Below the pieces are notes generated by a model. The model was not told the DNA's origin and searched no databases. It saw only the letters and a program-made list of their open reading frames with translations. From Morinoia aosen (taxonomy: Eukaryota > Arthropoda > Malacostraca > Amphipoda > Talitridae), in assembly GCA_030386875.1 (NCBI GenBank), contig CM059567.1:86793130-86857129 (forward strand): 64,000 nucleotides of DNA, in the 5' to 3' direction. Shown here in pieces: positions 1 through 59,957 of the stretch (position 1 is its first letter; the number at the start of each line of letters is the position of its first letter). The position numbers and the translations under genes are program-made.

Positions 1-475
1 TTTCACCTGTGGAACTTGAAACCGCAAATCGTTCATATTGGGTCCTGAAGTTCATGAAATACAATGAAGGCTGAGTATGATAGCACTGGAAAAATTAACT
101 TAAAGTTTATTTTGATTTTGGCTATATAATGTTATCGTTTGATTGGTGAAGTAGGGGATTTATGTGTTAGGCTTTCACTTTAATTTAATCCGTTCGTTCA
201 TTTTAGGAGGACTATCCTACAGATATTTAGTTTTGCTGACTTTGTGATGTTGGGCATGTATTTTTTCCAATATTTCCTGACATTATATGGTATCATATTA
301 TTTTATTTTGGGAAATTTGTTACGGACTGTTCCATACATGGTAGTATTTTTTTAATCATTTCACTTTCGGTTTCCCGGTTCCCTCCTTTATCGCTTAGAT
401 TTTTTTCAGATGTTTTCAATTACATTTATTTTTAAAAATATGTACTATAACTGAAATTTTTCACTATTGATTGGT
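1..475. repeat. Diverged direct repeat, copy A
   Basis: This block matches 1441-1865 in the same orientation. Shared landmarks include the phrase ending in accgttcatat, then ccgttcgttcattt, gactatcct, tgtgatgt, ttgttacgga, tgttccatacat, and a final pyrimidine-rich tttatcgctt. Copy A carries about 120 extra bases between the first and second landmark. The open frame at 244-435 lies inside the repeat and reads as hydrophobic low-complexity sequence, so I do not call it a gene. Divergence looks substantial, so the duplication is old. Confidence 0.7.
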
Positions 476-1440
476 TTGTGAGTTATTATTGCTTTGCAGA
501 CGTCATTAACATCAGACATGTAAATTCATAATATGCGTGTTTTTTCTCCTGCTTCGTAGAAAAGAAACCATTTCTTCAATAATTTATGTTTTTCCCTTAG
601 AGAGTTTGATCATTTTAGCAGTCAAATTAAATATACTTCCAAACAACATTATTTACGTCGCGAACTGCGAATAGTAATACATTATGACTAAGGCAGTATC
701 ACAGTAACTGCTGTTATTTGGTATAATTCTTTACATAATATGTGTCGTTTAAAACGGCTGTGACTTTTAGGAGAATAATGAAACAGAGTATTTCATTCCA
801 TTATTAAATGATACTTATATTGCCGAGCTATACAATAATAAATGTTCGCACTAGAGTTCTGTTACACAGCGACGAAAGGCAGCTGTTGAAGTGCGCATGG
901 TAGTGATTCTTGGTGGTGGTGACGAGCCGTACACGTACACAGAGTCGCTCACGCACACTGAGAATGTGCGAGGTTGACAGAGGTGCTGCCCGAGCACAGA
1001 CGTACATACGTGTGAACGCTCAGCTCAAGCTTATAAGCTAGTTAGGAAACTACCAGCGGCAGTACACAAGAGCAGTGCAACAGTCCGTACTCTGAATTTA
1101 TCACCTATATTTTTCGAAACGTTGGGTATGCCGTTACGTTTGAAATGATGCAGGGACACACTCGTTGTGCGTATGGCATTGCGCCCGCTATTTTTGTCTT
1201 TTTTTGTTCGTAGTGTCCTCTGCACGTCCGCTCAAACATTTCAAAGCAATCTAATAAAGAAAAAAGCACATGCCGATTCCTTCGGAACAAATCGCAAATG
1301 CACATGTTGCTAGATTTTTATTTTTCTTTACTGACAACAGTTGACGTCGATATTTTCGATTTTTTACATTACAAATTGTCTTCGTACTAGATTATGTTAT
1401 ATTAATAGACTACATAGCTTTCTATGTTTAATAGTTATTT
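476..1440. other. Spacer between direct repeats, no gene seen
   Basis: The DNA between the two repeat copies is AT-rich except for a GC-richer, CpG-containing island at about 870-1030. Short frames on the minus strand at 1031-1305 have no recognisable domain. I see no splice pair, RNA gene or element end here. Confidence 0.5.
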
Positions 1441-1865
1441 TTATTTATCATTTGGGACTTAAAACCGTAAACCGTTCATATCGTGTCATTTCACTTCAAT
1501 CCGTTCGTTCATTTGAGTGAGACTATCCTGCAGATTTCATTCATATAGTTGATTTCGTGATGTTTGGCATGTCTTTTTCCCTACATTTCCTTGTATAATT
1601 TGGTATTATATTTTTTAATATTGAACAATTTGTTACGGATTGATTGTTCCATACATAGGTGGATTAATTTTTAATTATTTCATCTCTGGTTTGCCGGTTT
1701 CATTATTTATCGCTTCATTTTTTTAGGTGATCAAATTTTTTGATTCATCTGGACGAAGTTTTGATTTTAGGTTCTGATTTGATTTTAGGTTATGAGGAGG
1801 ATGTCCTCAATAATATTAAATTTTCAAAACAATTTTTATAACTGAACTTTTTCATTCGTTTTTTC
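1441..1865. repeat. Diverged direct repeat, copy B
   Basis: Second member of the direct duplication with 1-475, lacking the ~120 bases inserted in copy A. The two copies keep the same order of landmarks over about 400 bases. Confidence 0.7.
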
Positions 1866-2929
1866 TCTAGTTTTTCGCATTTCTCGCTGATTGTTTCGAT
1901 TTCTGCATTCGACTTACTATTTTTTAACTTTTTCAACTGCTTTGTTTCTTCATCTATTATTTTCAGCAATCTGCTTCATTTTATCGCTTCGTTATTTCGT
2001 ATTCTCGTTCTATTGTATATAGTGCCCTTTTCAAATGAAAAATGTTTTTTCAATGTGCGGTTTTGTTTTGACAATCCTAATTTAACACAGTGTTAGCAAA
2101 CACTAATTTGATGTACTTATATGATTTGTAAGATGATATAATTTGTTGTAATTCGTTGCACTTCTCTTTCCATTGCTTCTTCGTAATCACGACTTGTTTC
2201 GGTCCGGTGCTACCTAAACATGATTAGTCAAAGCAGAAAGGTTACATTTACCGGTCGATTCATTATTTTAATTCGTTGATCTCTGTCGCAACACCATGGC
2301 ATTCCCTCAATGCTAATGTGTGTGTAAGACTGGAAATATGAGTTCGTTGATTTGTTAACGTGGAAGCAGCAATGAATAGTTTACAACAGTGATGCGGCAA
2401 CCCGATGCAATGCCCTTATTAATCAACAATGACAAGTACGAACACAAAATTCGCTTCATTGCTTGGTAAGGCAAAACTAAAGAAGCACCTCCTTGAGGGA
2501 AGTTATCACTTAAACCCGATTTCGTTAGAATGTTAGAAGATTTTGTACCCAATGGCACATAGAATAATGGTAACCTTCTGGCCCATAGAATAATGGTAAC
2601 TTTCTGGCCCACCGAATTATAGAATTATTATTCGCTTCGTGTTTTTAGGGAAATTTAAATGTTCGAAACAAAGAAAATCTCACGCCACACACTGTGATAC
2701 AGAGGCATGTTCAGAACTCCTCTAAAATGTTTTTTCTTCGCCGATGCTTAGAAGGTCAGGATGACATAAATCAAATATATTCATGCAAATTTAGAATATA
2801 ATGACCAGCTTACTGCCTGCTTATTTGATGTAGCGTTTGGTTCTGCGAAAGAGGTTAGTCATTGAACAACCGTCACTGGAAATATTCTAGTCCATTCTCA
2901 TTTGATTCAATGATTTAATTTCTTTTTAG
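1866..2929. other. No gene recognised
   Basis: AT-rich DNA. A short duplicated phrase on finding no difference in Illustrative sense, agaataatggtaac, occurs twice at about 2561-2600. The minus frame at 2355-2612 has no recognisable family. The segment ends in a pyrimidine tract and AG that would serve as acceptor for the exon-like block at 2930. Confidence 0.4.
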
Positions 2930-3077
2930 ATGACAACGCAGAGGAGGGACAACTTACTCTCATCATGGAAAACTGCAGTCTTGCTGTGGAAGAAAATTCA
3001 ACGTTTCTAAATGCCACAGCGTCCTCGCCACCTGGCACTCTCATTCCTTATTTCATCAAGAGTTCTCCATGAAATAG
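2930..3077 (+). CDS. Exon-like block 1, unknown gene
   Basis: A 148-base block preceded by a T-rich tract and TTTTAG, and followed by GTATGC. Read in phase 1 (one base supplied by the previous exon) it begins D-N-A-E-E-G-Q and runs about 46 residues, rich in Ser, Thr, Asn and Pro, before a stop 10 bases short of the donor. The block at 6657 has almost the same length, the same acceptor phase and the same opening D-N-A, so the two look like diverged duplicate exons. No family is recognised. The stop just before the donor means it is either a terminal exon or a decayed one. A gene is inferred only from splice borders and composition. Confidence 0.3.
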
Positions 3078-6019
3078 GTATGCCTTTATACGAATATTTT
3101 AGTATTGCAAGGGAACGATTTGGTTCACGTTTTTCATACTTAGCGGAAAAATTTTGATGGTGTTGAGTGAAAAGAAATTTTAGATCATGTGATCTGCAGC
3201 GTTAAGCTCATATCGGAAATTTGAAACAGTGGTTGGAAAAAACAAAATATCATCTGACACATTGTAATTACCTGAAGTGAAACTGTGAATACCTTTGGCT
3301 CTCAGAATGGCTTGAAATATACTTTTGATAGAAGCACCCAAGTCCCCTAAAGTTATCTAAGAGAATAACATTCTTCCTATGGAGCAGCTACACAAAGTTT
3401 TATCCACCAATGACCACATTAGCTCAATGATATATTCAGGCGTCGCGACTGTGGAGACTATTGGAGATGTGAGTCTTAGCGCCGGGGCGATTTGAATAGT
3501 TTCACTGCGGTTTCAGTAATTTGAAACAAGGCATTAGCCACTCCAGAGAAAAGCCTACAGCATGAGATGATGAAGCATTCCTTCGTAGTAATGTTATTGA
3601 ATGTTGTTAATGGGTCAGGAAAAATACCAGGATATGGCTGCCCCTGCCCTCACTTAACGGTAGAAATGTATCACTATTGTGCTGGCGATGTCATAATAAT
3701 CTGTATCAGAAACACGTGCTAGCTTTTTCCACACTGAAATGCGGCAGGGAGTAACAAATTTAATCCTCTATCAAGTCATCAGTGGCTCTAAAGTTGCTGC
3801 ACTGCCGAACATTTTTTGTTCGCGCATCTCTCTTCTGATTGTTTTTCCACTACCAGCGTTGTCAGCTTAGTTTTCATTCCATGAGTGACTTTAGGCGCCT
3901 GGGGACCTCCTTGGCGCAATCATACATACCCAAGTGTTTTGTTTCTCTTACGCAACACTCTCTTGGTTCTCGTAAGTGGTTTCATGGCACTCGTGGGGAG
4001 TTTGAATCTGTGAGTACTATATTTTGATCCCCCTTAAATTTCCTCTTTTTCATCATTGAAGTTCCCATTGTACGAGGGTCTCCTTCTTTTTGGCTCCATG
4101 GGCTAGAGAGTTAGCCTATTTCTTTGTGCACTTGGCTACAGGGTCTTCTAACATTCTGATGCGATTCGGGTTTGAAGTGACCACTTCTTTCAACGAGGTG
4201 CTTCTATAGTTTAGGCTATGCAACCAATGAGGTGAATTTTGTGTTTGAACTTGTCATTGTTCGTGATTCAGGGCATTGCATTGGGCTTTCACTTTCTTGT
4301 TGTAAACTAATCACTGCTGCTCTGATGTGTACGAATTGAAAAAAAAACGCTTATATTTCCAGGCTTGCTAGTACATTTTTCAAATTCGTTTTCATAAAAA
4401 GCACAATGCCGGGTTTTAAAAAGTTTTCAATATAGAAAACATGCGCTAAAATTAAAGGTAAATTGGATCTAATTGCGCGATAGTTGCGCAAAGTTTAAAC
4501 ATGATATTGACAGTTGGAAGGCATATTAGAATGTTCTCCATTGTGTAAATGAGCTTGAATTTAGAAAAGCTGATGAACAAGAGTCAAAAATGTTTTCAAT
4601 TTCAATATATTTCATACAAAAAATATAATACTACGCACATTACGTGTGAAATTTTTTTTTTTCATTTTATTTCTTTCCCATCGAATGTTGAGTCATTGAA
4701 TACGAACGAAATATTAAGAAACAATAGAAATGGTCGTTTTTGATAAGGTTTGCCATATATGACTGTATTTGAAAGGGAACTGGTTAGGCATATTATTAGG
4801 AGTAAAAATTCTCAGCCCATTAACTGCACACTCTCAAACTCTTATGTGTCTCACTTCTTAAAATACGAGCTGCATCTGAGGCTCACCTTATATCGGCTGA
4901 TGTTCAGTTCGTACTGTTCCGTTCGGCCAGTGTTTTCTTAGTCAAACAGATGAAGCTTGGGTTGTTGTGGGTTGTTTTGTGTCATCCGCTTACAGCGTAA
5001 CGCTTCCTTAATAAATTTATGTTGTGTAGGATTGCATTGCACCTATAATGTCTAGAGACCAGTAGGTGTGACCCCATTCATATTTACCATAGATCACCCT
5101 TAGGATCATATTCCGCTCTCAAAACATCGATCTCAAATATGATCGCATTTGATGTTGAAAAGTTTTATATTCGGCCTACATAACCCACATCACCTTATTC
5201 CGCAGATTACACTTCGAGCTCTAGCTACGGTCATCTATCTATATATGTGTTTTCACTTGAAATTCTGGCGCATAACAACCTCTCCACGCAATGAAGCTCT
5301 GGAGTACTCTTTCGCCATTCTTTCCTTTAGTTCTCTTTGTGTTCGACCCATTTACTAAGCGTATGACAGTTAATTTCTGTTGTCTTAATTAAGATAAATT
5401 GTCATTCTTCAAACATTTGTTTAGTAAGTCACATTATTTCTGCATCATTTCACTTCAAGAATATATGAATGCATTGGTTAATCATTTTTCATGGTCCTCA
5501 CTCTGGCTTTATTACTACCGGTAAAACTTCATGCATATAGATTTTTTAATCCCTTTTACACATCTCATTACATAGCTTTTCGTCCTCCCACAGCAGGATG
5601 TGCTTGTGTCACAAATGTTTCCAGTTTCCACTGCATATATTATTTCATCATTAGTACTTGGGCTACAGATATCGGAACGATTAGCTCCCGAAATTTTAAA
5701 TTTGTTGTGTTTATTTCATATCCTTCCCAAGTAAACTCTTCGCAGCTAATCATTACTTGTGGAATGAGCTATTAACGCTTCGACGTTCGTAAACAAATGA
5801 CATATCGGTAAGCTTTGAGTGCGTTTTTTGAATTGCTCATTTGAACAATCACGCTACTATTAACTGCAAGTAAAACTCCATCCATGCCACCATAGTAAAT
5901 CGGAAGATCATTGTACATCCCTTCGTAAACCTTGCATCAAGCCTTTCTGTCTTTCCCGGCACTTTCTTCGTCTTTTCTCAGCTTAAACCCTTAGAAAGAT
6001 ACAACTATAAAACCTATGA
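3078..6019. other. Intron-like or intergenic DNA, no gene recognised
   Basis: AT-rich sequence with several open frames of 60-94 codons (3839, 4549, 4750, 5149, 5491) that have no domain, no consistent codon bias and no splice partners I can defend. If the exon-like blocks at 2930 and 6657 belong together this is their intron. Confidence 0.4.
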
Positions 6020-6190
6020 CGCTTCCATAGGGAGAATGTACGGGCCTGAGCTGATGGTTAGGGAATCCTTTTTTTGTTGAAATAGTGCGTTTGCTTTTAA
6101 CAAGGACTTTGTTTCAGTTGACTGCCTTCCTTTTATTTAAGACCTACTAACTTCTGCTTTAACTTTTATCTTTGAAGTTTCAACCTGACA
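6020..6190 (+). repeat. Decayed SINE-like fragment
   Basis: The phrase gggagaatgtacgggcctga followed by gctgatggttaggg and a T-run plus gttgaaat matches the middle of the SINE-like element at 50069-50415 in the same orientation. No head, tail or target duplication can be recognised, so it is an old fragment. Confidence 0.5.
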
Positions 6191-6656
6191 TATTTTCTTG
6201 GCGCAGAGAGACTTTTGTTGGAACACACTTGTGCATAGGTTCCCCGTGTTCGTAATCATACTCGATGATTCCATCGTGATTACTCTCTTTTTTAGCTCCT
6301 TTGTTGTGGGTAAGGAACCTTAAACTAACATTTATGCCAAAAATATTTTTGACTCATAAATATTTAAAAGCTTTTACGCTTTCACCACTGATTGTAAAAC
6401 AACGTAGTTGTGTTTCTATTCCTGATCTTCGGGCCACATGTTTTTCCTCGCTTTAAACGATCCGTCGACATACAAAGGAAACTTATTTCCCTGATCACGC
6501 ACTCTGATCACAGTCGCTGATAAAAAATTTGCCCCAAATGTTCACATATATCTTTTATACTACTCTGTCGGAGTCTCTAATTTATTACTTATTTCTCGTC
6601 AACTGTACTCCTTCACATTCAAATGTATTTTCAGTAATATAAGTCATTTTATCCAG

Positions 6657-6803
6657 ATGATAACGCAGCGGGCGAAGTACTGCCCTATACGACAGCACTT
6701 CCTACGGATGAACATTTTGCCAGCGCTCCAACTACACCCAGCGCAGTACCTGTTGAGAGATGGGGCGTCTCCCCAACTCCATCTGGAACGTAATGTGGAA
6801 TCG
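6657..6803 (+). CDS. Exon-like block 2, unknown gene
   Basis: A 147-base block with acceptor TTATCCAG and donor GTATGA. In phase 1 it opens D-N-A-A-G-E-V-L-P, continues as Thr/Ser/Pro/Ala-rich sequence and meets a stop 14 bases before the donor, mirroring the layout of the 2930 block. An alternative frame starting at the first ATG is also open for about 50 codons, so the frame is not settled. The Ser/Thr/Pro composition would fit a secreted, O-glycosylated or disordered region, but no signal peptide exon or family is seen. Inferred duplicate of block 1. Confidence 0.3.
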
Positions 6804-6804
6804 G

Positions 6805-6896
6805 TATGATTATATGACAGATCTGTATCGTGAAATTAGGTTGAATTCGTTATGATTATATGATAGATCTGTATCGTGAAATTAGGTTGAATTCGT
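6805..6896. repeat. 46-bp tandem duplication
   Basis: Two adjacent 46-base copies (6805-6850 and 6851-6896) beginning tatgattatatga differ at one base. The first copy begins inside the donor site of the preceding exon-like block, so the duplication also copied the start of the presumed intron. Confidence 0.9.
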
Positions 6897-7829
6897 TATG
6901 ATTTTTCTAAATAGCAGTTCATTTAGTAAATTCTACCGTTTAAAATATTTTTGAAACTACAATACATTTTCAGCTGTTTCTACAATAAATTCTATTTTGG
7001 TTGCAGGCGGATAGATTGTGTACTCTAATATTCCTGATTTGTTCTTCGAATTATTTCAGTTTTCTCATTAAAATTTTTTGCGTATTCTATGTTCACTCGA
7101 TTAAGTCATAGTGATGAGCATATTAGAAGTTTGATGCCTTGTGTTTACACATTTTTGATTCATGGGTGATTTCTGAAGGTGTTTCGCTTGTTTATTGTAT
7201 TAGGTTAGACAATTTTCTAAATTTTTCGAAAGTTAGCCCATTTTGAGACTAATGCTTCAAGATAAAGAAGAAGAGAAGAAAAGAGAAACTGTTGTGAGAA
7301 CGTAATTTTGCTCAGTTCATATAGCTTTTTGTTGTGGTTGTAAAGCTTCCTGAGTTGTAGTTTTTCTCAATACTCGATCTAGCTTGTGAGTTTGCACGTC
7401 CTAAAGTGTACCAACACAGCTGCAGCAAACTAACACTAAGCTGTCACATCTTGCAAATGAGGTGTTTAGAGGAAAAATTGAAATGATCCATGCGTTAAAA
7501 ACATACTTGACTGTTACCTGCACCCCATCACGCAAGGGATGAGTCTTCAGTATAAATTTATACTGTCACCGTGTGACCTTTTCATTTAGAAACCACTTCA
7601 TGCTTTTTAGTGTTATTTGTTCATTTCGGTAGTATACTCATCACGAAAATGATCTTAGTAGTCGATTATGTTTGAACTCACTGCACATTACTCCCCTTTT
7701 TCGCAGTATATTTGACTACGAATAGATTTACTTTTCATGGGTGATGTGTGTGTCAATAAATCCTTCACAATGAAAAATGAATTCCTTTTCTCCTGTAACA
7801 TTGTATGAATCAATCTTTCCGACTTCCAG
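6897..7829. other. No gene recognised
   Basis: AT-rich DNA between exon-like blocks 2 and 3. No element ends or RNA gene seen. It finishes in a short pyrimidine tract and CCAG. Confidence 0.4.
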
Positions 7830-7986
7830 GTCATCAGAGCAAGATACCAGCAAATATCTCGAGCGCTGAATCAGCATTCACAAATACGTCAGGAGCAACT
7901 ACTGCCCCACTTTCGACTACTCCAACTCAAGCAAAGCCCCAATCCGGTTTTCAATGGTCAAATGGGTCCTTGTGTGAAAGTCGTCA
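7830..7986 (+). CDS. Exon-like block 3, Ser/Thr/Pro-rich
   Basis: A 157-base block between acceptor CTTCCAG and donor GTAAAC. In phase 1 it is open throughout (the frame also extends upstream to an ATG at 7805) and reads about 52 residues very rich in Ser, Thr, Ala and Pro, e.g. S-G-A-T-T-A-P-L-S-T-T-P-T, then a Trp and a Cys near the end. This mucin-like composition is unlike the Phe/Ile/Tyr-rich chance frames of the AT-rich surroundings, making it the best host-exon candidate in the left third. Function unknown. It shares acceptor phase with blocks at 2930, 6657 and 8138. Confidence 0.4.
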
Positions 7987-8137
7987 GTAAACTAATTTTT
8001 TACTTGTCATGGGACAAATCGAAAAATAGAGCTCCAGTGCTCTCTCAGAAATAATGTATGCGTCTTTTGATATTATGTTGAAGAAACCCATAATCTAAAC
8101 CATATTATTAATTGACTTCAACTGTACATTAATTCAG

Positions 8138-8171
8138 ATTCAAATTTGTGCACAGAACAAGATCCCTGGAG
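8138..8171 (+). CDS. Candidate 34-base microexon
   Basis: Bounded by ATTCAG and GTATGT. In phase 1 it reads D-S-N-L-C-T-E-Q-D-P-W. Like blocks 1 and 2 it begins with Asp completed across the junction, but block 3 would hand over a different phase, so direct splicing from block 3 to this block in that frame does not work. Low confidence. Confidence 0.2.
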
Positions 8172-8389
8172 GTATGTAAATCGAATACTCATTATGTAGA
8201 AACATACATTATAAGCAACGTGATTATTTTGAAGCAAATGATTGGCGTATCATCGAGTTCAGATAAAATCTTTTCATTTTACATGGACCTGGGTGCGTAG
8301 TTTCCTGCTGTTTATTGGATGTATTGAAATAGGTGCATATAGAATAATTTCAAGATCATCTGGGGAATATTAATTTTGCATCTGTGAGA

Positions 8390-8640
8390 AGTAGCGCTCG
8401 TAGGGAGACAATATTAGGGCCGAGTTGATGGTTAGGCAAGCCTTATTTTTGGTGGAATGCCGTGTTTTTGGTGTTGTGAAGAACCATATTTTGAGATTTT
8501 TTACTTTATCTCTGTTGTTAGTTAGCTACACTTTCTACAGGATTCTAAGTGTTGGGCTCTCGGTGGTTAACTGATACTAGGTATTGTTTTAATCTCACAT
8601 TTACTTTCTTCGTGATCTTTCATCCCAACACTTTTTATGT
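8390..8640 (+). repeat. Decayed SINE-like fragment
   Basis: Contains gtagcgctcgtagggag, agggccgagttgatggttag and a T-rich/gttg stretch in the same order as the SINE-like element at 50069-50415. Too diverged to place its ends. Confidence 0.5.
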
Positions 8641-9008
8641 TTGTAGGATTAATAAAGTGCCTGAACGTGAATTCTTCGTTACGTGCCTATACCTTATGGT
8701 TTCATCATAACTTATCTCATGTAATAATCTTTGTGGTTAGAAAGGCAAAAATAGTACAATCATCTTCCTTCTAGGTAAATGTAAAGTGAAAAAGAAAATG
8801 CGGTTAAGATTGCATTTTAGTCATTGAATGAAAGATTGATTTGTTTTTGAGTTGATATTTGAACCATGAGAGCTTCCGACTGAATTAGTCCGTTACAGAG
8901 ACACTAGGGAACCTACATTATATCTAGTAATAACCATATCATACGCTTTTATAGATTTACTCATTTTCTTTCCCAAATGTTTTTGAAAGGGTGAAACTAC
9001 AATGTATG

Positions 9009-9201
9009 GGAAGTAGTGCTCCCAGAAGGAGAATGTAAAGGCTCAATCTGAAGATAATGCAAGACTTGTTTTGTCAATAGTGTGTTGTTTTGATTTGCTT
9101 TGTTCGAGACCATTTATTTTTTGTTCACGGATATCTTTTTATGATCATTAATACTTCCTTTTTGAATTTTTATCATGTTGGAGCTTCTTTCCTGACTTTT
9201 A
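9009..9201 (+). repeat. Decayed SINE-like fragment, target of TTAA element
   Basis: gtagtgctcccagaaggaga with following aatgtaaaggctcaatctga and ttgttttgtcaata matches the middle of the SINE-like family. It recurs in each 1359-bp unit (about 10368 and 11727). The TTAA transposon lies directly in its downstream part. Confidence 0.45.
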
Positions 9202-9205
9202 TTAA

Positions 9206-9916
9206 GGACACCGTCTAGGTAGAAATCAGGATATGTGTTGATTTTCTGCTTTTATATGCATCTAATAGAGGATTTTCTTGCGCTTCCATTGGTACTTTCC
9301 GTTTACGTCTACTCCGAATAGTGCGCCCACCAGAGGGGGGGGAAAGCGATGGGGGTGGCGTGACCTTGACCCCTCACCCCCCTCATTATTGGGGGTCAAT
9401 TGAGCGTGTTTCTCTGCGGTAATGGCAATATAGTTCGTTCATGGGCTACACAAAGTGCTTTCATTATTCAAACGAAACATTCTAACGCTGAATAAATATT
9501 TTTTGTAAAATTTTGGCAATTTCAGAATTTAGCTGTTCTGCCGTATCTATGATAATGAAGCAGGAGACCGTCTTGATAGAAATCGGGATATGTGTTGATT
9601 ATCTGTTTATATATGCATCTTATAGAGGATTTTCTTGCGCTTCCATTGGTTCTTTCCGTTTACGTCTACTCCGAATAGTGCGCCCACCAGAGGGGGGGAA
9701 AGCGATGGGGGTGGAGTGACCTTGAACCCTCCCGCCCTCATTATTGGGGGTCAATTGAGCGTGTTTCTCTGCGGGAATGGCATTATAGTTTATTAATGGG
9801 CTACTCAAAGTGCTTCCATTATTCAAACGAAACATTCTAACGCTGAATAAATATTTTTTAATAATTTTTGACAATTTCAGAATTTAGCTGTTCAGCCATA
9901 TCCATGATACCGCAGC
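9206..9916. repeat. Two ~357-bp internal direct repeats
   Basis: Within each 1359-bp unit the stretch starting at the transposon terminus is duplicated: 9206-9562 and 9563-9916 share gaggattttcttgcgcttcc, the phrase gtgcgcccaccagag with its G-run, tattgggggtcaattgagcg and aatttcagaatttagctgtt. The second copy also opens with a variant of the terminal repeat (ggagaccgtcttgatagaaa), so the element end itself was duplicated. Confidence 0.85.
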
Positions 9917-12900
9917 TTTCATTCATAGCTCAATGACAGCTGCAGTATCATAGCTACAGCTATGGCGAGCACACCAATCCAAAGGGCTTGAAAAGAGCTA
10001 TAAAACAAAGGAGTTGACTTGACAAAAAAAACGTATTTTGGTCAAAAAAAAATGAAAAATTAAAAAAATTGGTTGCTTTCAAGAATTACACCTACTCTAT
10101 TTTGATGTATATTTTTTCCCAGAGTTACAGAGCTACAGCAATGTAAATTATATCAATCGAAAGGGCTTGAAAAGAGCTACAAACGCTCAAGAGTTCATTA
10201 TAGAAAACCCTGTAGTTCAAAAGATATAAAGAAAATTATTTTTTTTTTAAAAACACGTTTTTCTGGAAACTTGATAATTGGTTTCTCAAATGCTACTTCT
10301 TCCACAATTTTAGAGTTACTCATTTTCTTTCCCAAATGTTTTTGAAAGGGTGAAACTACAATGTATGAGAAGTAGTGCTCCCAGAAGGAGAATGTAAAGG
10401 CTCAATCTGAAGATAATGCAAGACTTGTTTTGTCAATAGTGTGTTGTTTTGATTTGCTTTGTTCGAGACCATTTATTTTTTGTTCACGGATATCTTTTTA
10501 TGATCATTAATACTTCCTTTTTGAATTTTTATCATGTTGGAGCTTCTTTCCTGACTTTTATTAAGGACACCGTCTAGGTAGAAATCAGGATATGTGTTGA
10601 TTTTCTGCTTTTATATGCATCTAATAGAGGATTTTCTTGCGCTTCCATTGGTACTTTCCGTTTACGTCTACTCCGAATAGTGCGCCCACCAGAGGGGGGG
10701 GAAAGCGATGGGGGTGGCGTGACCTTGACCCCTCACCCCCCTCATTATTGGGGGTCAATTGAGCGTGTTTCTCTGCGGTAATGGCAATATAGTTCGTTCA
10801 TGGGCTACACAAAGTGCTTTCATTATTCAAACGAAACATTCTAACGCTGAATAAATATTTTTTGTAAAATTTTGGCAATTTCAGAATTTAGCTGTTCTGC
10901 CGTATCTATGATAATGAAGCAGGAGACCGTCTTGATAGAAATCGGGATATGTGTTGATTATCTGTTTATATATGCATCTTATAGAGGATTTTCTTGCGCT
11001 TCCATTGGTTCTTTCCGTTTACGTCTACTCCGAATAGTGCGCCCACCAGAGGGGGGGAAAGCGATGGGGGTGGAGTGACCTTGAACCCTCCCGCCCTCAT
11101 TATTGGGGGTCAATTGAGCGTGTTTCTCTGCGGGAATGGCATTATAGTTTATTAATGGGCTACTCAAAGTGCTTCCATTATTCAAACGAAACATTCTAAC
11201 GCTGAATAAATATTTTTTAATAATTTTTGACAATTTCAGAATTTAGCTGTTCAGCCATATCCATGATACCGCAGCTTTCATTCATAGCTCAATGACAGCT
11301 GCAGTATCATAGCTACAGCTATGGCGAGCACACCAATCCAAAGGGCTTGAAAAGAGCTATAAAACAAAGGAGTTGACTTGACAAAAAAAACGTATTTTGG
11401 TCAAAAAAAAATGAAAAATTAAAAAAATTGGTTGCTTTCAAGAATTACACCTACTCTATTTTGATGTATATTTTTTCCCAGAGTTACAGAGCTACAGCAA
11501 TGTAAATTATATCAATCGAAAGGGCTTGAAAAGAGCTACAAACGCTCAAGAGTTCATTATAGAAAACCCTGTAGTTCAAAAGATATAAAGAAAATTATTT
11601 TTTTTTTAAAAACACGTTTTTCTGGAAACTTGATAATTGGTTTCTCAAATGCTACTTCTTCCACAATTTTAGAGTTACTCATTTTCTTTCCCAAATGTTT
11701 TTGAAAGGGTGAAACTACAATGTATGAGAAGTAGTGCTCCCAGAAGGAGAATGTAAAGGCTCAATCTGAAGATAATGCAAGACTTGTTTTGTCAATAGTG
11801 TGTTGTTTTGATTTGCTTTGTTCGAGACCATTTATTTTTTGTTCACGGATATCTTTTTATGATCATTAATACTTCCTTTTTGAATTTTTATCATGTTGGA
11901 GCTTCTTTCCTGACTTTTATTAAGGACACCGTCTAGGTAGAAATCAGGATATGTGTTGATTTTCTGCTTTTATATGCATCTAATAGAGGATTTTCTTGCG
12001 CTTCCATTGGTACTTTCCGTTTACGTCTACTCCGAATAGTGCGCCCACCAGAGGGGGGGGAAAGCGATGGGGGTGGCGTGACCTTGACCCCTCACCCCCC
12101 TCATTATTGGGGGTCAATTGAGCGTGTTTCTCTGCGGTAATGGCAATATAGTTCGTTCATGGGCTACACAAAGTGCTTTCATTATTCAAACGAAACATTC
12201 TAACGCTGAATAAATATTTTTTGTAAAATTTTGGCAATTTCAGAATTTAGCTGTTCTGCCGTATCTATGATAATGAAGCAGGAGACCGTCTTGATAGAAA
12301 TCGGGATATGTGTTGATTATCTGTTTATATATGCATCTTATAGAGGATTTTCTTGCGCTTCCATTGGTTCTTTCCGTTTACGTCTACTCCGAATAGTGCG
12401 CCCACCAGAGGGGGGGAAAGCGATGGGGGTGGAGTGACCTTGAACCCTCCCGCCCTCATTATTGGGGGTCAATTGAGCGTGTTTCTCTGCGGGAATGGCA
12501 TTATAGTTTATTAATGGGCTACTCAAAGTGCTTCCATTATTCAAACGAAACATTCTAACGCTGAATAAATATTTTTTAATAATTTTTGACAATTTCAGAA
12601 TTTAGCTGTTCAGCCATATCCATGATACCGCAGCTTTCATTCATAGCTCAATGACAGCTGCAGTATCATAGCTACAGCTATGGCGAGCACACCAATCCAA
12701 AGGGCTTGAAAAGAGCTATAAAACAAAGGAGTTGACTTGACAAAAAAAACGTATTTTGGTCAAAAAAAAATGAAAAATTAAAAAAATTGGTTGCTTTCAA
12801 GAATTACATCTATTCTATTTTGATGTATATTTTTTCCCAGAGTTACAGAGCTACAGCAATGTAAATTATATCAATCGGAAGGGCTTGAAAAGAGCTACAA

Positions 12901-13033
12901 ACGCCCATGAGTTCATTATAGAAAACCCTGTAGTTCAAAAGATATAAAGAAAATTTTTTTTTTTGAAAAAACACGTTTTTCTGGAAACTTGATAATTGGT
13001 TTCTCAAATGCTACTTCTTCCACAATTTTAGAG

Positions 13034-13456
13034 CTAGGAAAATGGTTTATATACCATTCGATAGGGGTCAGCAAGGTGTATCCTCGCGCAATAGCATTTT
13101 CTGATAAATTTATTATTTTTAAAATTACACGACATGAAAAAAAAAATGAAAAAAGTTCATTTTTTTTTAATTCCCAAAATCCACAAAAAATAAGTTATCG
13201 AAATTCCCTATTGCGAGTGGTTATATAGACATCTAAGCAATCTAAAAACGAAGTACTGGTTTTGTAACTTGAAAATTGTAGAAGTATATAGTAGGATTTT
13301 TAAAAAACCCCTATTTTATCATATTTTTCGAAAATAAAAAAAAAATCCAGTGCAGATACAAAAATTTTGTCGAAATAAATGATATTTCCATCATTTCACA
13401 CTTACTGTGAAAATTTGAGAGAAATCCATATATAAATAACGGGACTTTTTTTACCC
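13034..13456. other. Right part of the TTAA element, AT-rich
   Basis: Single-copy continuation of the element beyond the tandem array. Several A-runs and no coding potential. The short frames at 12989 and 13311 are not convincing. Confidence 0.5.
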
Positions 13457-13747
13457 AGACGGTGTCCTTAAATGCTCGTGGATGCTTGTTGCATGGGAAC
13501 ATGTTTGAGCGTAGATTTCTGGAGTACACGTACATATTACATGGTACCCATCCACTTGCCATGTGAAGTCGGAGTTGTAATGGAAAAGTAGCTTCAAACT
13601 TATACGATAATATGCAATCTGAGCTCTGAACTACTACCAATTTTTTTTATCTAATTGAAACCTTTACCTACTCAAAGAACATACCACCAATTCTCTGGAA
13701 GGATTTCAATTTATATGAGTTAAAATTTCCCATAATAATTCTTGTAG

Positions 13748-13828
13748 CGTGTAGAAATGTTTTTGTGTTAAAAATCTTCTCCATGAATGATGAGTTCAAA
13801 CTGCTTGTTAATACACCGAAGAATATAG
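13748..13828 (+). CDS. Candidate 81-base exon, unknown gene
   Basis: Preceded by a pyrimidine-rich tract ending CTTGTAG and followed by a full consensus donor GTAAGT. One of three frames is open and reads C-R-N-V-F-V-L-K-I-F-S-M-N-D-E-F-K-L-L-V-N-T. No family recognised and no partner exon found. Confidence 0.2.
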
Positions 13829-15601
13829 GTAAGTACTTGTATTGGGTCTACTAATTGATTTGTATGGTTAAATTCTGCCTTGATGCTACTTGCACTAGGT
13901 TCTAAGAGAATTATAGACTGGACACTAAATAGATGTTGCCGGTTCTATTTCATAACTTTTTTTGTCGATGTAGAAGCCATCACGAGTATATTTTTTTGGT
14001 TTTTGATGCGGCTCATGTCTTTCAAAATGAACTACACTGCGTAATAGAAATTTCTATTTGCATACCTGTGTGATTCACCCTCTGCCTATCAATATGATTC
14101 AATGTTTCCAGGGGGTCATAAGAAACTCTCGGTTCATCCACAGAGCGTTTTAATTGTTTTCATGAGCTTAAAATGCAGCGTTTATTTCAAAAGACTCTGA
14201 GCTGGTTGGTGTTATGCTTTTACTGCTATATATATAGAAGAAGTTTGCGTTGTGTCATGCAGGTGTGTGCACTGCTAATCTCATATTGATTTGTTGTGAA
14301 TTTCGCATCGTCCCCTTTGCACCCTTTAGTGTAATAAGTTTGCGCTTCATCATAGGTATGTTTTTTCAGTATGACATGTCATAGAAAACTGTTTCGCCAA
14401 CTCAAGTTACTGCTGTAAGGAATTTATCACATTGGATTTCCTATGTTACTCTACGGTTTTGTTCTTTTTCTTAGACTTCCATCGAGTGGCTGCCTAAGCA
14501 GTTCACATTGAACTTTTCAAATGGATTTTTGAAGATGTATTCTACATAATTGAATTAGTAAAGATCAATCATTTTTTAGTTCGCTGCTGAGATTTTGCCT
14601 CATTTGTTTATTTTCTTTAGTAGACATCCATAATAAGCGCCTTATAAGCAAGTTGAGTAAAGATCGTTCAACCATGCTCGTTTCAGTTTAATATCCCCTC
14701 TTCAGACCTCACGCGCGTGTTAAATATACTACGGCAACTCTGTGTGAAGGGTACGGTGAGCAGCAGAGGTCATTATTTTATATGGTTCATTGTACAGACT
14801 GTGTAACATAGATACTCAAACGCAGAACTATCGTCGTTGATGGTAGTTCACAAAAATATCATCTATTTAAATAGACATATGCACCATCAATAGCCACTAT
14901 ACCCTACGTCTTGCTCTCTAGCAAGTAATGATAGTCATACTGTACTCCTTGTTCTGAGAGAACAAAGTATATTTTTGACAATAACAAAATAGTCGTGGCC
15001 AGTCGTTCGTTTAGTTCTCTGCTGATTCTTCAGGTGCATTTTTGGCTTCGACTGATTTTTTCTGAGGCCGAGTAAAACTTGATTTCATACTTTTCATGTG
15101 CTTCGTATAATAAAATTTTTGTTATAGAGCGCGATCTGCGAAATTAGCAACTAATACAGTGAATCTAATAATCTCAGTGTGACAAGTTGGTTACAATTTC
15201 ATATTCTATCTCCAAGCCAGAAGCGCGTACAAGCGAATAATTTTACAAGTGATGAACAATATATAGCGAAAGAGTTTGTTTAACACAGGCTCGATGACGA
15301 TTGCTGTAATATACGTCGCTAATGCCTGATATTCTTTAATTGAAATTATGGTGCGCAGACTTATTCAAAGTGAGGTACTGTACATTATAGCAATACGTAG
15401 AGACTGACTGTAGGGAACTTTCGGCTTTATGATGAAGGTCATGAACAACCTTAATGATTGGTAAATGAACTATTGTTTGTCTCGATGTCATAATTAGCTA
15501 AAAAAAAAATTTATTTTGGGGCGTTCGAAAATTTACTCTAAAACTTATTGCACATTGGATTTCTGGAATGCTGATCTTCCCAACGTGAATGCAAAATCTT
15601 A
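13829..15601. other. No gene recognised
   Basis: AT-rich DNA with a small hairpin near 14825-14850 (gaactatc / gatggtagttc). No element ends or coding frames I can support. Confidence 0.4.
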
Positions 15602-15615
15602 CAAAATTATTTTAC
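15602..15615. repeat. Target-site duplication, 3' side of RTE-like LINE
   Basis: The 14 bases caaaattattttac here recur exactly at 17484-17497 and bracket the LINE insertion. Confidence 0.9.
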
Positions 15616-17483
15616 ATACATATACATACATATACCGGGCTTATCCTCCCCATGGGAGGGTAGCCGACAGCAGGCCACAATCACCACACTTAGTCACTAG
15701 GAGGCGAGAGAGGCAGCACTGGCCGCACCTGAACTGCCAGGATCAGCAGCAGCCCAGCACAACCACCTTCCACAGTCAGGCCCGACAGCAACAGCTGGTT
15801 TACCCCGACCGCTTCATTGAGTGCAGCCCCTCCCCCGCACGTGACAGGTCAACCCCATCACACGCGGGCAGCTTCCAGTAGCGCGTCAAAAATAAAATTA
15901 CCTCCTTATACACTGCCCCCACTCACTTCTGTCCGCAGCCATCCCTCTCGCCACGTCCACAGTCAGACCCCTCTCATACAAAGCACGTCGCACCCCATCC
16001 ATCCAACTCATCCGTGGTCTACCTCGCGCTCGAAGACCACTCACTTCCGACATATATGTCTTTTTCACCAGCCGATCAACATTCATTCTTTCTACATGCC
16101 CAAACCATCCAAGCACTCTTTCATCCACTCGCCTGCTCAACTTTTTGATAACACCCGTCTGCTCCCTAACCAACTCATTCCTGATCCTATCTCTTCTAGT
16201 TACTCCATACATGCTCCTCAAACACTTCATCTCAAACACATCCAACTTCCTCCTCTCAGCTGCTCTCAACCCCCAGGACTCTGCTCCATACAACAAAACT
16301 GGCACAATCAAACTTTCATACAGTCCCCTCTTAGCATTCATACTCAAACTCCTGCATTCAAAAACTTTCCTCATTGCACCCAATGTCTTACAACCTTCAC
16401 TCACTCGATGCTTCACTTCTACTTCCATACTATCCTTAACAGTAACATCCGACCCGAGGTACCTAAAATGCTCTACCTCCTCTAAAACTTCCCCATTCAA
16501 CCTCACATCCAAAGTTCCAAACACTCCACCTCTTGAACATCTCATCACCTTACTTTTATTCATATTTACCCTCAATTTCCGCCTTTCGCACACTCTACCA
16601 AACTCTGTAACCAGTCTCCTCAGTTTTTCCTCTGAATCAGCCACAAGCGCTGTATCATCTGCAAACAACAGCTGACACACTTCCCAATACATACCATTTC
16701 GTCCCACCAACTGCGCACCTTTTCCCAACACTCTGGCATTCACTTCTCTCACCACACCATCCATAAACAAATTAAACAACCACGGCGACATCACACATCC
16801 CTGTCTCACACCTGTCACAACTGGGAACCATTCACTCACCTCATTCCCTACTCTCACACATGCTCTGCTATCAATGTAGAAACTCTTGATCGCATTCAAC
16901 AGTCTCCCACCCACTCCATACAAACTTACCACTTGCCATAAAGCCTCGCGATCCACTCTGTCATACGCCTTCTCTAGATCCATAAATGCCCAATATACAT
17001 CCTTTCCCTTTAATAAGTATTTTTCATTCACCTGCCTCACAGCAAACATTTGATCCACACAACCTCTACCACACCTAAAACCACACTGTTCTTCAGCAAG
17101 CACACGATCCGTCAACACTCTCACTCTTCCAATTAACACTCTTCCATACAGCTTCCCAACGACACTCAGTAGACTTATACCCCTAGAATTACTGTACTCA
17201 TACCTGTCACCTTTCCCCTTGTACAACGGAACTACGCACGCGCTACTCCAATCAACCGGCACTTTACTAGCCTCGAAACACACATTTAATAAACGCACCA
17301 ACCATTCTATAACCACATTTCCTCCTTTCTTTAGACATTCAACCGTGCAGCCATCCAAACCTGGAGCTTTCCCATTTTTCATTTCATCCAACGCACATCT
17401 CACCTCTGCACTTCTTATTCGATTTCTATTCACTTCACCAAACACAGGCATTCTAACATCACTTCCAACAGCTACTACTCTCG
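15616..17483 (-). mobile_element. 5'-truncated RTE-like LINE with perfect TSD
   Basis: A 1.87-kb minus-strand insertion between exact 14-bp direct repeats. It holds an open reverse transcriptase frame, a ~280-base 3' untranslated part containing a hairpin (tcctcccatgggagg), and a terminal tatgta/tatatg microsatellite tail, as RTE-type LINEs have. The 5' side stops abruptly inside the coding frame at the TSD, the normal result of incomplete target-primed reverse transcription. Exact TSDs and an unbroken frame indicate a recent insertion. Confidence 0.92.
15898..17481 (-). CDS. RTE-like LINE reverse transcriptase, N-terminally truncated
   Basis: The frame is open from the insertion junction (17481) to the stop at 15898, 527 codons. 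The first Met is at 17451 but is unlikely to be the real start, because the frame stays open through the junction and the endonuclease part is missing. Numbering from that Met, reverse transcriptase motifs run in order: A-F-M-D-L-E-K-A-Y-D at 155-164 (first catalytic Asp), G-V-R-Q-G-C-V-M-S-P at 214-223, the F-A-D-D catalytic pair at 263-266, F-R-Y-L-G-S near 329, and a conserved C-terminal part with L-Y-G-A-E-S-W and G-R-P-R-M-S-W. All catalytic residues are present. The enzyme would copy element RNA at a nicked target, but the copy lacks the apurinic-like endonuclease domain. The RTE clade is assigned from the C-terminal motifs, single-ORF style and tail; a nearby LINE clade is possible. Confidence 0.92.
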   Translation of the reverse strand, partial: RVVAVGSDVRMPVFGEVNRNRIRSAEVRCALDEMKNGKAPGLDGCTVECLKKGGNVVIEWLVRLLNVCFEASKVPVDWSSACVVPLYKGKGDRYEYSNSRGISLLSVVGKLYGRVLIGRVRVLTDRVLAEEQCGFRCGRGCVDQMFAVRQVNEKYLLKGKDVYWAFMDLEKAYDRVDREALWQVVSLYGVGGRLLNAIKSFYIDSRACVRVGNEVSEWFPVVTGVRQGCVMSPWLFNLFMDGVVREVNARVLGKGAQLVGRNGMYWEVCQLLFADDTALVADSEEKLRRLVTEFGRVCERRKLRVNMNKSKVMRCSRGGVFGTLDVRLNGEVLEEVEHFRYLGSDVTVKDSMEVEVKHRVSEGCKTLGAMRKVFECRSLSMNAKRGLYESLIVPVLLYGAESWGLRAAERRKLDVFEMKCLRSMYGVTRRDRIRNELVREQTGVIKKLSRRVDERVLGWFGHVERMNVDRLVKKTYMSEVSGLRARGRPRMSWMDGVRRALYERGLTVDVARGMAADRSEWGQCIRR

Positions 17484-17497
17484 CAAAATTATTTTAC
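17484..17497. repeat. Target-site duplication, 5' side of RTE-like LINE
   Basis: Exact copy of the 14-base repeat at 15602-15615. Confidence 0.9.
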
Positions 17498-32117: not shown

Positions 32118-32580
32118 CTAGACGGACAACAGACCTCACTTCAGTAGTTCAACGCTTCTTTTGAGTTTTTTAAATTGGTGCGCTCGGTGAAGCTAGCCAA
32201 CACAGATAGCATTCCTAAGAAGTAATTTTTTATTAAGCCCCTCCCACATCTGATAAGCATCGGGGACATATCTCACTTGGATGAGAACGACAAAAAAATG
32301 TGAGGAAGCCGAGTACAGTAATTCTGATCTAACAGATTCCACCTACAGAGAAGTGTATTTTGATTATTTGATACCTCTCATTCGTCAAGTCAAAACTTAT
32401 CAGCCCAAGCAACTAAAAACATTGAGCTATTTTTGTTGAATTGGAAAAAAGACCTGAAAGACTATTTCATACTACTGTCTTCTCAACATGTAAAATTGAT
32501 CGAGTGTAACATGTTAAACATTTTCTAATGAGAAAAATTCTCGCAGCCCTGTAAAGTCCTCGAAACCCACCCATGCTACT
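32118..32580. other. No gene recognised
   Basis: AT-rich DNA between the LINE fragment and the TTAA foldback. Confidence 0.4.
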
Positions 32581-32584
32581 TTAA

Positions 32585-33593
32585 GGCCACCGAACGGTTT
32601 TTTCCTAGAAATTTACAAAAAAATAAATAAAAATACTTCTGGAGCGAAATAGGCTCTGAGGTTTTAACAGTATGTTTATAGCAATCTAATAAACATTCAT
32701 AGCCCATAAAATTTTTGAAATTTATCCATGCATCATTCCCTCCCCCCTCAGAGAGAAATTTCTAAAAAATCCTATTTCTCAGCCAATATTGTACATAGAG
32801 AGGATTAGTTTTTTGTTCGATTCACAATGAACTGGTCGACAAAGTTAAGATCCAGAATTTTGATACCGCTTCAAAAAAAAATTTGGGAATTTTTTGAATT
32901 TTTTATCACTAAATATATTACATTTTAGTTATTACCTTGAATGCCAATGAAAAAAATCTTATATAACTTATCAAAAAACAACTAGGCAGGTTTATAGTAC
33001 TCACCTTGATCTTTACAATGCAAAAAAGATTTCCATCATAAGTAAAAAACTGTTGGAGATATACTTGAAAAAGTTGAGCACTTTTTCTTAAAAAATGTTT
33101 TTTTTGTCGTGCGGGTTTATTTCTCCTACAGTTTTTCACTTATGAAGAAGATCTTTTCAGCATCGTAAAGATAGAGGTGAGTACTATTAGGTTGAGATGT
33201 AGCTTTTCAGTAAGTTGATTAGAAAATTTTTTGTAACCATTTGAAGAAAAAAAAATTGAAAGAAAAAATTTTTAATTCAAACATTTTTTAAATTTTTTTT
33301 GAAGCGATATCAAAAAACTGGATCTTAACTTTGTCGACCAGTTCATTGTGAATCGAACAAAAAAAACTAATCATCTCTAGGTACAATATTGGCCGAGAAA
33401 TATGATTTTTTAGAAATTTCTCTTTGAGGGGGGGGGGGGGGAAGAGGGGTATGGGTATATTTAAAAATTTTATGGGCTATGAATGTTTATTAGATTTTTA
33501 TAAACACGCTTGTAAAACCTCAGAGCCTATTTTGCTCCAGAAGTATTTTTATTTATTTTTTGAGAATTTCGAGTAAAAAACCGTTCGGTGGCC
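32585..33593. mobile_element. TTAA-flanked foldback palindrome element
   Basis: TTAA (32581-32584) then GGCCACCGAACGGTTTTTT; the right end is its inverted copy, closed by GGCC at 33590-33593 and TTAA (33594-33597). The two halves pair almost along the whole length: e.g. gctctgaggttttaaca / acctcagagc, gaactggtcgacaaagttaa / ttaactttgtcgaccagttc, and near the centre (~33090) catcataagtaaaaaactgt / acagtttttcacttatga. There is a poly-G run at ~33428. No coding frame. Confidence 0.88.
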
Positions 33594-33597
33594 TTAA

Positions 33598-34100
33598 ATA
33601 TGTCACCGCTTTTATCGTTGGCTAGATAACCTACATAGGTGGGATATAACTCAAAAGACCTACCTCTGCTTATGAAACTTTTTTCTAACTTGAATCTATA
33701 GAAAGAAGTGGCTACTAACTCTTCGTTTCATTCTGTTGTGGTTTTGAGCGAGAGATCATTTCTATTCGCCACCTCCCTTTATTTCAAATAAGAAGGCGAA
33801 ATAAAAGAAAAACCGTAGGAAATAAAAATAAATCTCTCGACAGTTGATGAGGCCTAGTGAACACGGTCCTTCAAAAATGTATAATAATGTTCGACAAATC
33901 ACATGACACACGTTCCTATTTCCTAAGAATTCACGTGATATTCATTCTACTCGTATTTGATGGATTAAAATAATGGAAATTGTGGAGTTGATGAAGCTTG
34001 TATCACAGATACGCTCATTACACATTTTCTGCTCGCTTCGGACAGACAGACGGGGCTCTTATTAAAGTATAGATTCCGGGTTCCGTCACCAATCACTATG
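33598..34100. other. No gene recognised
   Basis: AT-rich single-copy DNA. Confidence 0.35.
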
Positions 34101-38600: not shown

Positions 38601-38760
38601 GAACTCAATACCTGCGGAGATCCGTGAAAGTAATTCTTACAAGGTATTTAAAAGAAATCATGAGTCTCACTTCTTATCAGAATACTCGTCGTGTAAGATC
38701 ACCAAGTCAAATCCTGCCTCCTACATGTCTGGTCCTAATAATGCAATTTGCCATGAGTAA
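35686..38760 (+). pseudogene. LINE endonuclease/reverse transcriptase, inactivated
   Basis: The ATG follows an in-frame TGA, fixing the start. N-terminal part is an apurinic-like endonuclease: L-L-C-W-N-C-R-S near residue 52, T-E-S-W-L-D near 84, then G-D-F-N-Y-D at ~36260 and L-S-D-N-F at ~36455. The reverse transcriptase follows with N-Y-R-P-I-S-M-L-P (~37387), F-L-D-F-R-K-A-F-D (~37600) and G-V-P-Q-G-S-V-L-G-P-L-L (~37770). Frameshifts lie near 36200, 37830 and 37955. Two active-site changes stand out: the endonuclease S-D-H is S-D-N (codon AAT), and the reverse transcriptase F-A-D-D is F-A-N-D (~37862). Each of these alone should abolish activity. The C-terminal part (37933-38760) is open and includes L-Q-Y-G-T-E-T-W. 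Clade: CR1/L2/Daphne group of the Jockey superfamily, not resolved further. Confidence 0.88.
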
Positions 38761-54621: not shown

Positions 54622-54930
54622 GTATGCTTCTGATAGAAAGCGATGCTTCCAAGTTTATCATTCTGAAGCATGGAGAAGTAAAGTACACTGCAGCAGTGAA
54701 GGGGGTTTTTGGAACAAAGTTCTACTCTAAAAATCCTCGTAAGGTTCCAAACCAAAAGGCATTTCGACGAGTCTTCGGAAATGCCACGAGGAGCCTGTCG
54801 ATGACTCGTTGAAATGCCTTTTGGCTTGGAACCTAACGAGGATTTTCAAGGTAGAACTTTGTTCCAAAAACCCTCTTCACTGCGACAGTGTACTTGTTTT
54901 TTCAATACTTCAGAATGATGAATTTGGATT
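54622..54930. repeat. Foldback inverted repeat, ~113-base arms
   Basis: Left arm ~54660-54770 (ttctgaagcatggagaagta ... ggcatttcgacgagtc) pairs with right arm ~54803-54918 (gactcgttgaaatgcc ... aatacttcagaa). Similarity extends weakly outward (aagtttatcattctg / cagaatgatgaattt). High arm identity and a ~35-base loop suggest a small MITE-type foldback. Confidence 0.85.
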
Positions 54931-58436: not shown

Positions 58437-58459
58437 AATTAACTACAGCTTTTTAACTT

Positions 58460-58665
58460 TAATTTTAAAAAAGCTCAAGTTCAATTTAAAAAAGCTCAAG
58501 TTCAATTTAAAAAAGCTCAAGTTTAATTCAAAAAATCTCAAGTTTAATTTAAAAAAACTCAAGTTTATTTTGAAAATCTCAAGTTTGATTTAAAAAAGAT
58601 CAAGTTTAATTTAAAAAAGATCAAGTTTAATTTAAAAAGTCTCAAGCAGACTATATTTAAAAAAA
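58460..58665 (+). repeat. 21-bp minisatellite, left arm
   Basis: Unit ctcaagttcaatttaaaaaa + g with variants (gatcaagtttaattt...), about nine units. Confidence 0.9.
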
Positions 58666-59674: not shown

Positions 59675-59935
59675 TTCAAATTAAGCTTGTTCTTTTTTAA
59701 ATTAAACTTGAGCTTTTTTAAATTAAACCTGAGCTTTTTAAATTAAACTTGAGCTTTTTAAAATTAAACTTGAGCTTTTTTAAATTGACCTTGAAATTTT
59801 TTCAAATTAAACTTGAGCTTTTTTAAATTGAACTTGAACTTTTTTAAATTAAACTTGAGCTTTTTTAAATTGAACTTGACCTTTTTTGAATTACCCTTGA
59901 GCTTTTATAATTTGAACTTGAACTTTCTTAAAGTA
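59675..59935 (-). repeat. 21-bp minisatellite, right arm
   Basis: Reverse-complement units such as cttgagcttttttaaattaa, about twelve, mirroring the left-arm array. Confidence 0.9.
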
Positions 59936-59957
59936 AAGTTAAAAAGCTGTGGTAACT

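What the first reader, a model, noticed from the sequence alone, without database searches (positions are those of the whole stretch)
8957..13033. 1359-bp triplication that straddles one end of a transposon
The repeat unit starts ~249 bases outside the left TIR of a TTAA-flanked element and ends inside the element, while the right TIR (13457-13467) is present once. So the host flank and transposon left end were amplified together. This gives three left ends facing one right end, an arrangement that can arise by unequal exchange or replication-based repair rather than by transposition. Coordinates are exact: 3 x 1359 = 4077 bases.
Basis: seen in the sequence. Interest (0 to 1): 0.72.

Follow-up and report, generated by a model that had tools for sequence, protein, structure and literature searches.

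The report
Tandem triplication across a transposon's edge
One end of a small DNA transposon, together with a bit of its neighbouring DNA, has been copied into three tandem units, apparently by a repair accident followed by ordinary misaligned recombination; this is a clean fossil of a known process rather than a new system.

Summary
Units 8957-10315, 10316-11674 and 11675-13033 are direct copies of 1359 bp; units 1 and 2 differ at 1 site, units 2 and 3 at 8. Each holds 245 bp of flank, a TTAA and the first 1110 bp of an element with its left TIR; the right end occurs once. The element is a TTAA-flanked TIR transposon of about 1.55 kb, with no open frame of 150 aa and 3159 first-look candidates in a 1.99-Gb genome. 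The 'host flank' is itself part of a repeat of over 15 kb; 21 of 24 pairable copies of it are uninterrupted at this TTAA. The joins of insertion and units were found only here, within 3 mismatches. The units are not three equal copies of one event: unit 1 keeps the ancestral left edge, unit 3 has a different right edge, the core is identical, and unit 2 combines unit 3's left edge with unit 1's tail. An older two-unit duplication expanded by unequal exchange should look like this. The first duplication probably came from a break inside the transposon repaired by template switching to the adjacent flank. Known kind; assembly copy-number error not excluded.

The parts
8957..10315 (+). unit 1: ancestral left edge (G at 9009), shared core, tail variant t12
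10316..11674 (+). unit 2: left edge as unit 3 (A at 10368), shared core, tail t12 as unit 1; the inferred recombinant unit
11675..13033 (+). unit 3: left edge A, shared core, different tail t3 that runs on into the right end of the element
8957..9201 (+). 245 bp of flank (part of large repeat X) in unit 1; repeated at 10316-10560 and 11675-11919
9202..9216 (+). TTAA plus left TIR GGACACCGTCT; repeated at 10561-10575 and 11920-11934
9562..9909 (+). second, degenerate copy of the element's left end without TTAA (355-bp internal tandem repeat); repeated at 10921-11268 and 12280-12627
10091..10315 (+). tail t12 (unit positions 1135-1359); identical at 11450-11674; differs at 8 sites from t3 at 12809-13033
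10308..10323 (+). element/flank junction (10315|10316; again 11674|11675), imperfect microhomology TAGA-N-N-TA
13034..13471 (+). single right end of the element, right TIR 13457-13467 and TTAA 13468-13471
100..9201 (.). repeat X, left of the insertion (searched from window position 100 on; its own left end was not found)
13468..15609 (.). repeat X, right of the insertion, up to the start of a retrotransposon

Best explanation
A non-autonomous TTAA transposon of about 1.55 kb inserted at a TTAA in one copy of repeat X (shown by empty sites). Later a break near position 1114 inside the element was repaired by switching the left broken end, over a few matching bases, to the flank 245 bp outside the left TTAA on the sister or homologous chromatid. 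Copying on through flank and left end and rejoining in register leaves two tandem units (inferred). The two units diverged; homologous exchange or conversion between them then made their cores identical while the outer edges escaped (inferred from the pattern). A last unequal crossover between positions 53 and 1135 of misaligned units made the middle unit, which carries unit 3's left edge and unit 1's tail (pattern shown, event inferred). The result is three left ends facing one right end. I found no sign that the structure has a function or has moved.
For: Exact tandem units and an abrupt junction. Position 9009: unit 1 has G like 9 of 9 X copies aligned (5 duplicate loci left out); units 2 and 3 share A. 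Core 54-1134: no difference among the three units; tail: units 1 and 2 identical, unit 3 differs at 8 sites. 8 of 9 differences in 225 of 1359 positions has a binomial chance of 4e-6, or 1e-4 if the poly-T tract counts as one event. Both tails carry 898A (0 of 22 other copies, one of them gapped there) and 949A (0 of 22), and the 61-base stretch holding both is exact in the three units alone among 117 genome matches within 2 mismatches, which speaks for one origin of the tails. One-lineage divergence of the window's X copy is 39 of 3163 columns against 8 X copies; this allows up to about 27 core differences if the core were as old as the tails, and none are seen. Joins found only here. The junction shows 6 of 8 matching bases, reached by 2.7% of 200,000 random joins. 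Gap filling of this sort is in print for animal TIR transposons (PMC8277862; outline, abstract and passages).
Against: No base of exact overlap at the join itself, and 6 of 8 is weak microhomology. The core-homogenising events are unseen. 8 tail differences (6 if the poly-T tract is one event) are at or slightly above the roughly 5.5 that the X clock allows. Shared origin of the tails is likely, not certain: at least 3 of the listed matches (C3:10203676, C5:64081800, C10:33482371) also carry 898A with 949A, on an otherwise different background, and three places elsewhere score slightly above unit 3's tail as matches to t12 (395, 393 and 393 bits against 390). Only one assembly, no reads.
Confidence: 0.55

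Rival explanations
1. Two-haplotype origin: the first duplication was an exchange between two different alleles of the single-insertion locus, one (G, t12) and one (A, t3). The differences are then old allelic variation, no core homogenisation is needed, and one later unequal crossover made unit 2.
For: Needs only two recombination events and gives the same (G,t12), (A,t12), (A,t3) order. The tails look like relatives, as alleles would.
Against: Needs alleles 8 differences apart over 225 bp but 1 in 1134 apart next to it.
Confidence: 0.15
2. Mutagenic repair: the tail differences arose at birth, by error-prone synthesis or damage of single-stranded DNA within 225 bp of the break at element position 1114; the whole array is young.
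For: All 8 tail differences lie within 225 bp of the junction; no homogenisation needed.
Against: Differences fall on both tail lineages and their number is near what the X clock permits without hypermutation.
Confidence: 0.12
3. Assembly artefact: true copy number is one or two and the assembler duplicated a unit or joined two haplotypes.
For: Near-identical 1.36-kb units are a classic source of copy-number error; no reads available.
Against: A homology-poor junction present twice in identical form, and two different tails attached to different contexts, suggest at least two real units. The mosaic order is the one real recombination predicts.
Confidence: 0.1
4. Ectopic conversion: one of the two tails was overwritten by another copy of the element elsewhere in the genome.
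For: t12 and t3 are about as unlike each other as either is to its best match elsewhere (97% and 96%); three places elsewhere match t12 slightly better than t3 does.
Against: Both tails share 898A, 949A and 1026T, interspersed among the differences, and the exact 61-base stretch was found in the three units alone. No donor of over 97% was among the 40 scored.
Confidence: 0.06
5. Transposition with alternative ends, or repeated insertion at the same site, made the array.
For: TTAA is present at each left end; one other fetched copy is a head-to-tail double insertion sharing one TTAA (L028).
Against: The unit's right border is at no TIR or TTAA, and the right end is not repeated. The array's joins were found nowhere else.
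Confidence: 0.02

Closest known systems
Tandem duplications expanded by unequal crossing over with concerted evolution (general knowledge; passages on concerted evolution in PMC12400953)
   Same: Identical core, differing outermost edges, recombinant middle unit.
   Different: Only three units; the unit straddles a transposon end. That edges escape homogenisation is recalled, not taken from a paper read here.
Pack-TIRs made by transposition-independent gap filling (PMC8277862; outline, abstract and passages seen)
   Same: DNA from outside the element lies between a left and a right TIR, its source is within 5 kb in cis, and the break is internal to the element.
   Different: The filler is the element's own flank plus its left end, so it reads as a tandem duplication; the flank is itself a repeat. 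'piggyBac' has 0 occurrences in that paper's main text.
Tandem arrays built from MITEs or other transposons (review PMC12628747; passages seen; McGurk and Barbash 2018 not held, seen only as cited in the passages)
   Same: Transposon DNA becomes the unit of a tandem repeat that grows by unequal exchange.
   Different: Here the seed is not a double insertion or an internal repeat, and part of the flank is in the unit.
TTAA-specific (piggyBac-like) non-autonomous DNA transposons
   Same: 4-bp TTAA target duplication, short TIRs.
   Different: TIR begins GGACACCGTCT; the six piggyBac elements examined begin CCCTTTCGGTCCG. No transposase partner found.

Membership tests
TTAA-specific TIR transposon | 4-bp TTAA target duplication | tested here: met
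   9 of 9 aligned X copies have a single TTAA where the window has the element between two. Of 20 fetched copies, 13 have TTAA on both sides, 2 have matching variants on both sides (TGAA in L029, TCAA in L038) and 5 have TTAA on one side only. The two matched variants show a 4-bp duplication.
TTAA-specific TIR transposon | terminal inverted repeats | tested here: met
   24-nt arms 92% complementary, including TTAA.
piggyBac superfamily | piggyBac transposase (PF13843) in an element with the same ends | tested here: inconclusive
   116 scored transposase matches from 2397 first-look candidates; 6 of 116 loci examined, all with another TIR. The other 110 were not read.
piggyBac superfamily | ends beginning with C's after TTAA (recalled) | tested here: not met
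   Ends begin GGACACC. So it is not filed as piggyBac.
Unequal-exchange tandem array | a unit with the left variants of one neighbour and the right variants of the other | tested here: met
   Unit 2 = unit 3 at position 53 and = unit 1 at 8 tail sites.
Unequal-exchange tandem array | copy number differs between individuals | not testable with these tools
   One assembly, no reads.
Pack-TIR by gap filling | non-element DNA duplicated between the TIRs | tested here: met
   Flank copies 10316-10560 and 11675-11919 lie between the outer left TIR and the right TIR.
Pack-TIR by gap filling | microhomology at a breakpoint | tested here: inconclusive
   6 of 8 matching bases, no exact overlap at the join; 2.7% of random joins do as well.
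Double-insertion tandem array | complete elements head to tail sharing a target site | tested here: not met
   Right end not repeated.

The most novel reading that the evidence does not exclude
Breaks inside TTAA transposons of this family are regularly repaired by copying the adjacent flank plus the near end, giving composite elements with several left ends and captured flank. A transposase could use the outermost left end and move the 4.27-kb composite, which would be a route by which short transposons gain flank DNA and seed tandem arrays. The family-wide doubled left end and the flank duplication beside L043 would be further traces of it.
Probability: 0.08. Interest if true: 0.45.

Novelty: new member of a known kind. 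Interest (0 to 1): 0.25.

Why it matters
It is a small, readable record of how a tandem repeat starts: an empty site, a single insertion, a non-homologous first duplication and a homologous expansion can be put in order from one assembly. It also places three usable-looking left ends against one right end, a natural test of which end a transposase picks. It changes no general view.

Tried and rejected
Donor from another element copy for one tail: suspected because t12 and t3 are about as far apart as each is from its best match elsewhere (97% and 96%). Put low, not excluded: both tails share 898A, 949A and 1026T and the exact 61-base stretch was found in the three units alone, but at least 3 of the listed matches also combine 898A with 949A on another background.

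TA target duplication (Tc1/mariner type) instead of TTAA: rejected because TTAA stands on the left in 17 of 20 copies and two copies carry matched TGAA and TCAA.

Transposition or daughter copies of the array: no second locus with the junction or the joins within 3 mismatches.

Autonomous partner: 6 of 116 piggyBac loci read; TIRs differ. Not pursued further.

A younger origin of the core, from fewer private differences (3 strictly private in 889 against 8 in 438 on the right, counted from the listing), is not claimed, because 20 of the 22 copies compared were chosen by likeness to a query that includes the core.

L040 and L038 also have direct repeats near the element. L040 looks like an insertion into an existing tandem duplication; L038 was looked at only briefly.

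Rfam: no match at the gathering score in the window. Literature: the searches found no paper with all terms; those gave listings (12 of 159 shown). PMC12400953 and PMC12628747 were seen as passages, PMC8277862 as outline, abstract and passages. The species was not identified.

Full report
Check. The sequence holds three direct units of 1359 bp at the stated coordinates. Unit 1 and unit 2 differ at one site (unit position 53), unit 2 and unit 3 at eight, all between positions 1135 and 1292. Left of 8957 and right of 13033 likeness falls to chance level. Each unit is 245 bp of flank, then TTAA and the element up to position 1114 counted from the TTAA; after unit 3 the element runs on to its only right end, TTAA at 13468-13471.

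The element. The genome (1.99 Gb, 29 contigs; the window is C12:86793130-86857129) gave 3159 first-look candidates for the unit, of which 40 were scored. Matches outside this locus begin at or near the TTAA (query position 237 or later), so the family is the element and not the unit. Of 20 fetched copies, 18 run through to the right end in about 1.55 kb and two (L026, L031) are interrupted there. TTAA stands on the left in 17 of 20 and on the right in 14 of 20; 13 have both, two have matched TGAA or TCAA, and five differ between the sides. So the target duplication is 4 bp. All 20 show the internal 355-bp doubling of the left end, but they were chosen by likeness to a query that has it. No open frame of 150 aa or more lies in the window's element. 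Six of 116 scored piggyBac transposase loci were read; their TIR is a different one.

The site. The flank is not unique. 8400-9201 and 13468-14100 match the same places elsewhere. Of 39 left matches used, 24 could be paired with a right match; 21 of these 24 run straight through (18 without gap, 3 with an overlap or gap of 1-3 bases), and three have gaps of 743-2838 bp that were not read. 9 of 9 aligned copies have one TTAA there. The repeat, here X, reaches from window position 100 or before to about 15.6 kb; the longer matches are 88-98% identical, and the list goes down to 76%. Within 3 mismatches the left join occurs three times and the right join once, all at this locus, and the unit-to-unit junction twice, both here.

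Order of events. At unit position 53 all 9 X copies aligned have G, as has unit 1; units 2 and 3 share A. In the tail, units 1 and 2 share one version and unit 3 has another. Against 22 family copies, units 1 and 2 are changed at 894 (0 of 22 alike) and 1037 (1 of 22); unit 3 at 890 (0), 959 (1), 986 (1) and 989 (0); the rest lies in a poly-T tract. 898A and 949A stand in all three units and in none of the 22, one of which has a gap at 898; 1026T is shared by all three units and 1 of 22. Genome-wide, 117 places match the 61-base stretch around 898 and 949 within two mismatches, and the three units alone match exactly. This speaks for one origin of the two tails. It is not proof: at least three of the listed places carry 898A with 949A on another background, and three places elsewhere match t12 slightly better than t3 does. 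The core between positions 53 and 1135 shows no difference in any pair. The window's X copy has 39 private substitutions in 3163 columns against 8 X copies. Units as old as the tails could therefore have gathered up to about 27 core differences. The simplest account is recombination between units that renews the core and spares the outer edges, and a last unequal crossover that made unit 2 from unit 3's left part and unit 1's right part.

First duplication. The join puts element position 1114 next to 8957 in X. The two parents match at 6 of 8 bases across it, with no exact overlap at the join; 2.7% of 200,000 random joins do as well. A break inside the element, repaired by switching to the nearby flank and copying back through the left end, gives this unit directly. 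Such transposition-independent gap filling is described for animal TIR transposons, with sources often close by in cis and breakpoints moderately skewed to the inside of elements (PMC8277862, passages). Here it is inferred.

Verdict. An accurate observation and a sound interpretation, refined by the empty sites, the uniqueness of the joins and the recombinant middle unit. It is an ordinary genome process seen unusually clearly. The main open doubt is copy number, which needs reads.

Noticed in passing
9205-9909 and L025-L044: The element carries two tandem copies of its left 355 bp (about 92% alike), the second without TTAA; 20 of 20 fetched copies have it (chosen by likeness to a query that has it), so an earlier left-end duplication seems to be a family trait.
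   Followed up: partly
100-15609: A dispersed repeat X of over 15 kb; apart from a retrotransposon at its traced right end no open frame of 150 aa; long matches of 88-98% on many contigs, several on C23 and C24. What it is remains unknown.
   Followed up: partly
15614-17486 (ORF 15898-17493, minus): Retrotransposon piece with a reverse transcriptase domain (RVT_1) and 39 listed copies at 99-100% identity among 40 scored: probably recently active.
   Followed up: partly
L043:2081-5092: Another copy of the element sits exactly at the boundary of a 726-bp direct repeat of its flank (98.8% alike), with GTAA on the left and TTAA on the right: possibly a second flank duplication tied to this family.
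   Followed up: partly
L028:2571-5876: Two copies of the element head to tail with a single TTAA between them, the second older and interrupted.
   Followed up: partly
L049-L054: Six piggyBac elements of about 2.9 kb with open frames of 576-645 aa, no stop in the matched part, and identical 14-nt TIRs CCCTTTCGGTCCGA: probably a recently active autonomous family.
   Followed up: no
46694-46904, 58458-58646, 59673-59937; also L026:1-597 and L030:1-1078: Arrays with a 21-bp period in the window, and 21-bp-period arrays beside two fetched copies of the element.
   Followed up: no
32580-33598, 54648-54928, 58783-59053: Long self-complementary (fold-back) stretches of 0.27-1.0 kb, 79-89%.
   Followed up: no
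35686-38760: Three open frames in a row that look like a second retrotransposon; a reverse transcriptase domain was found in the middle one only.
   Followed up: no
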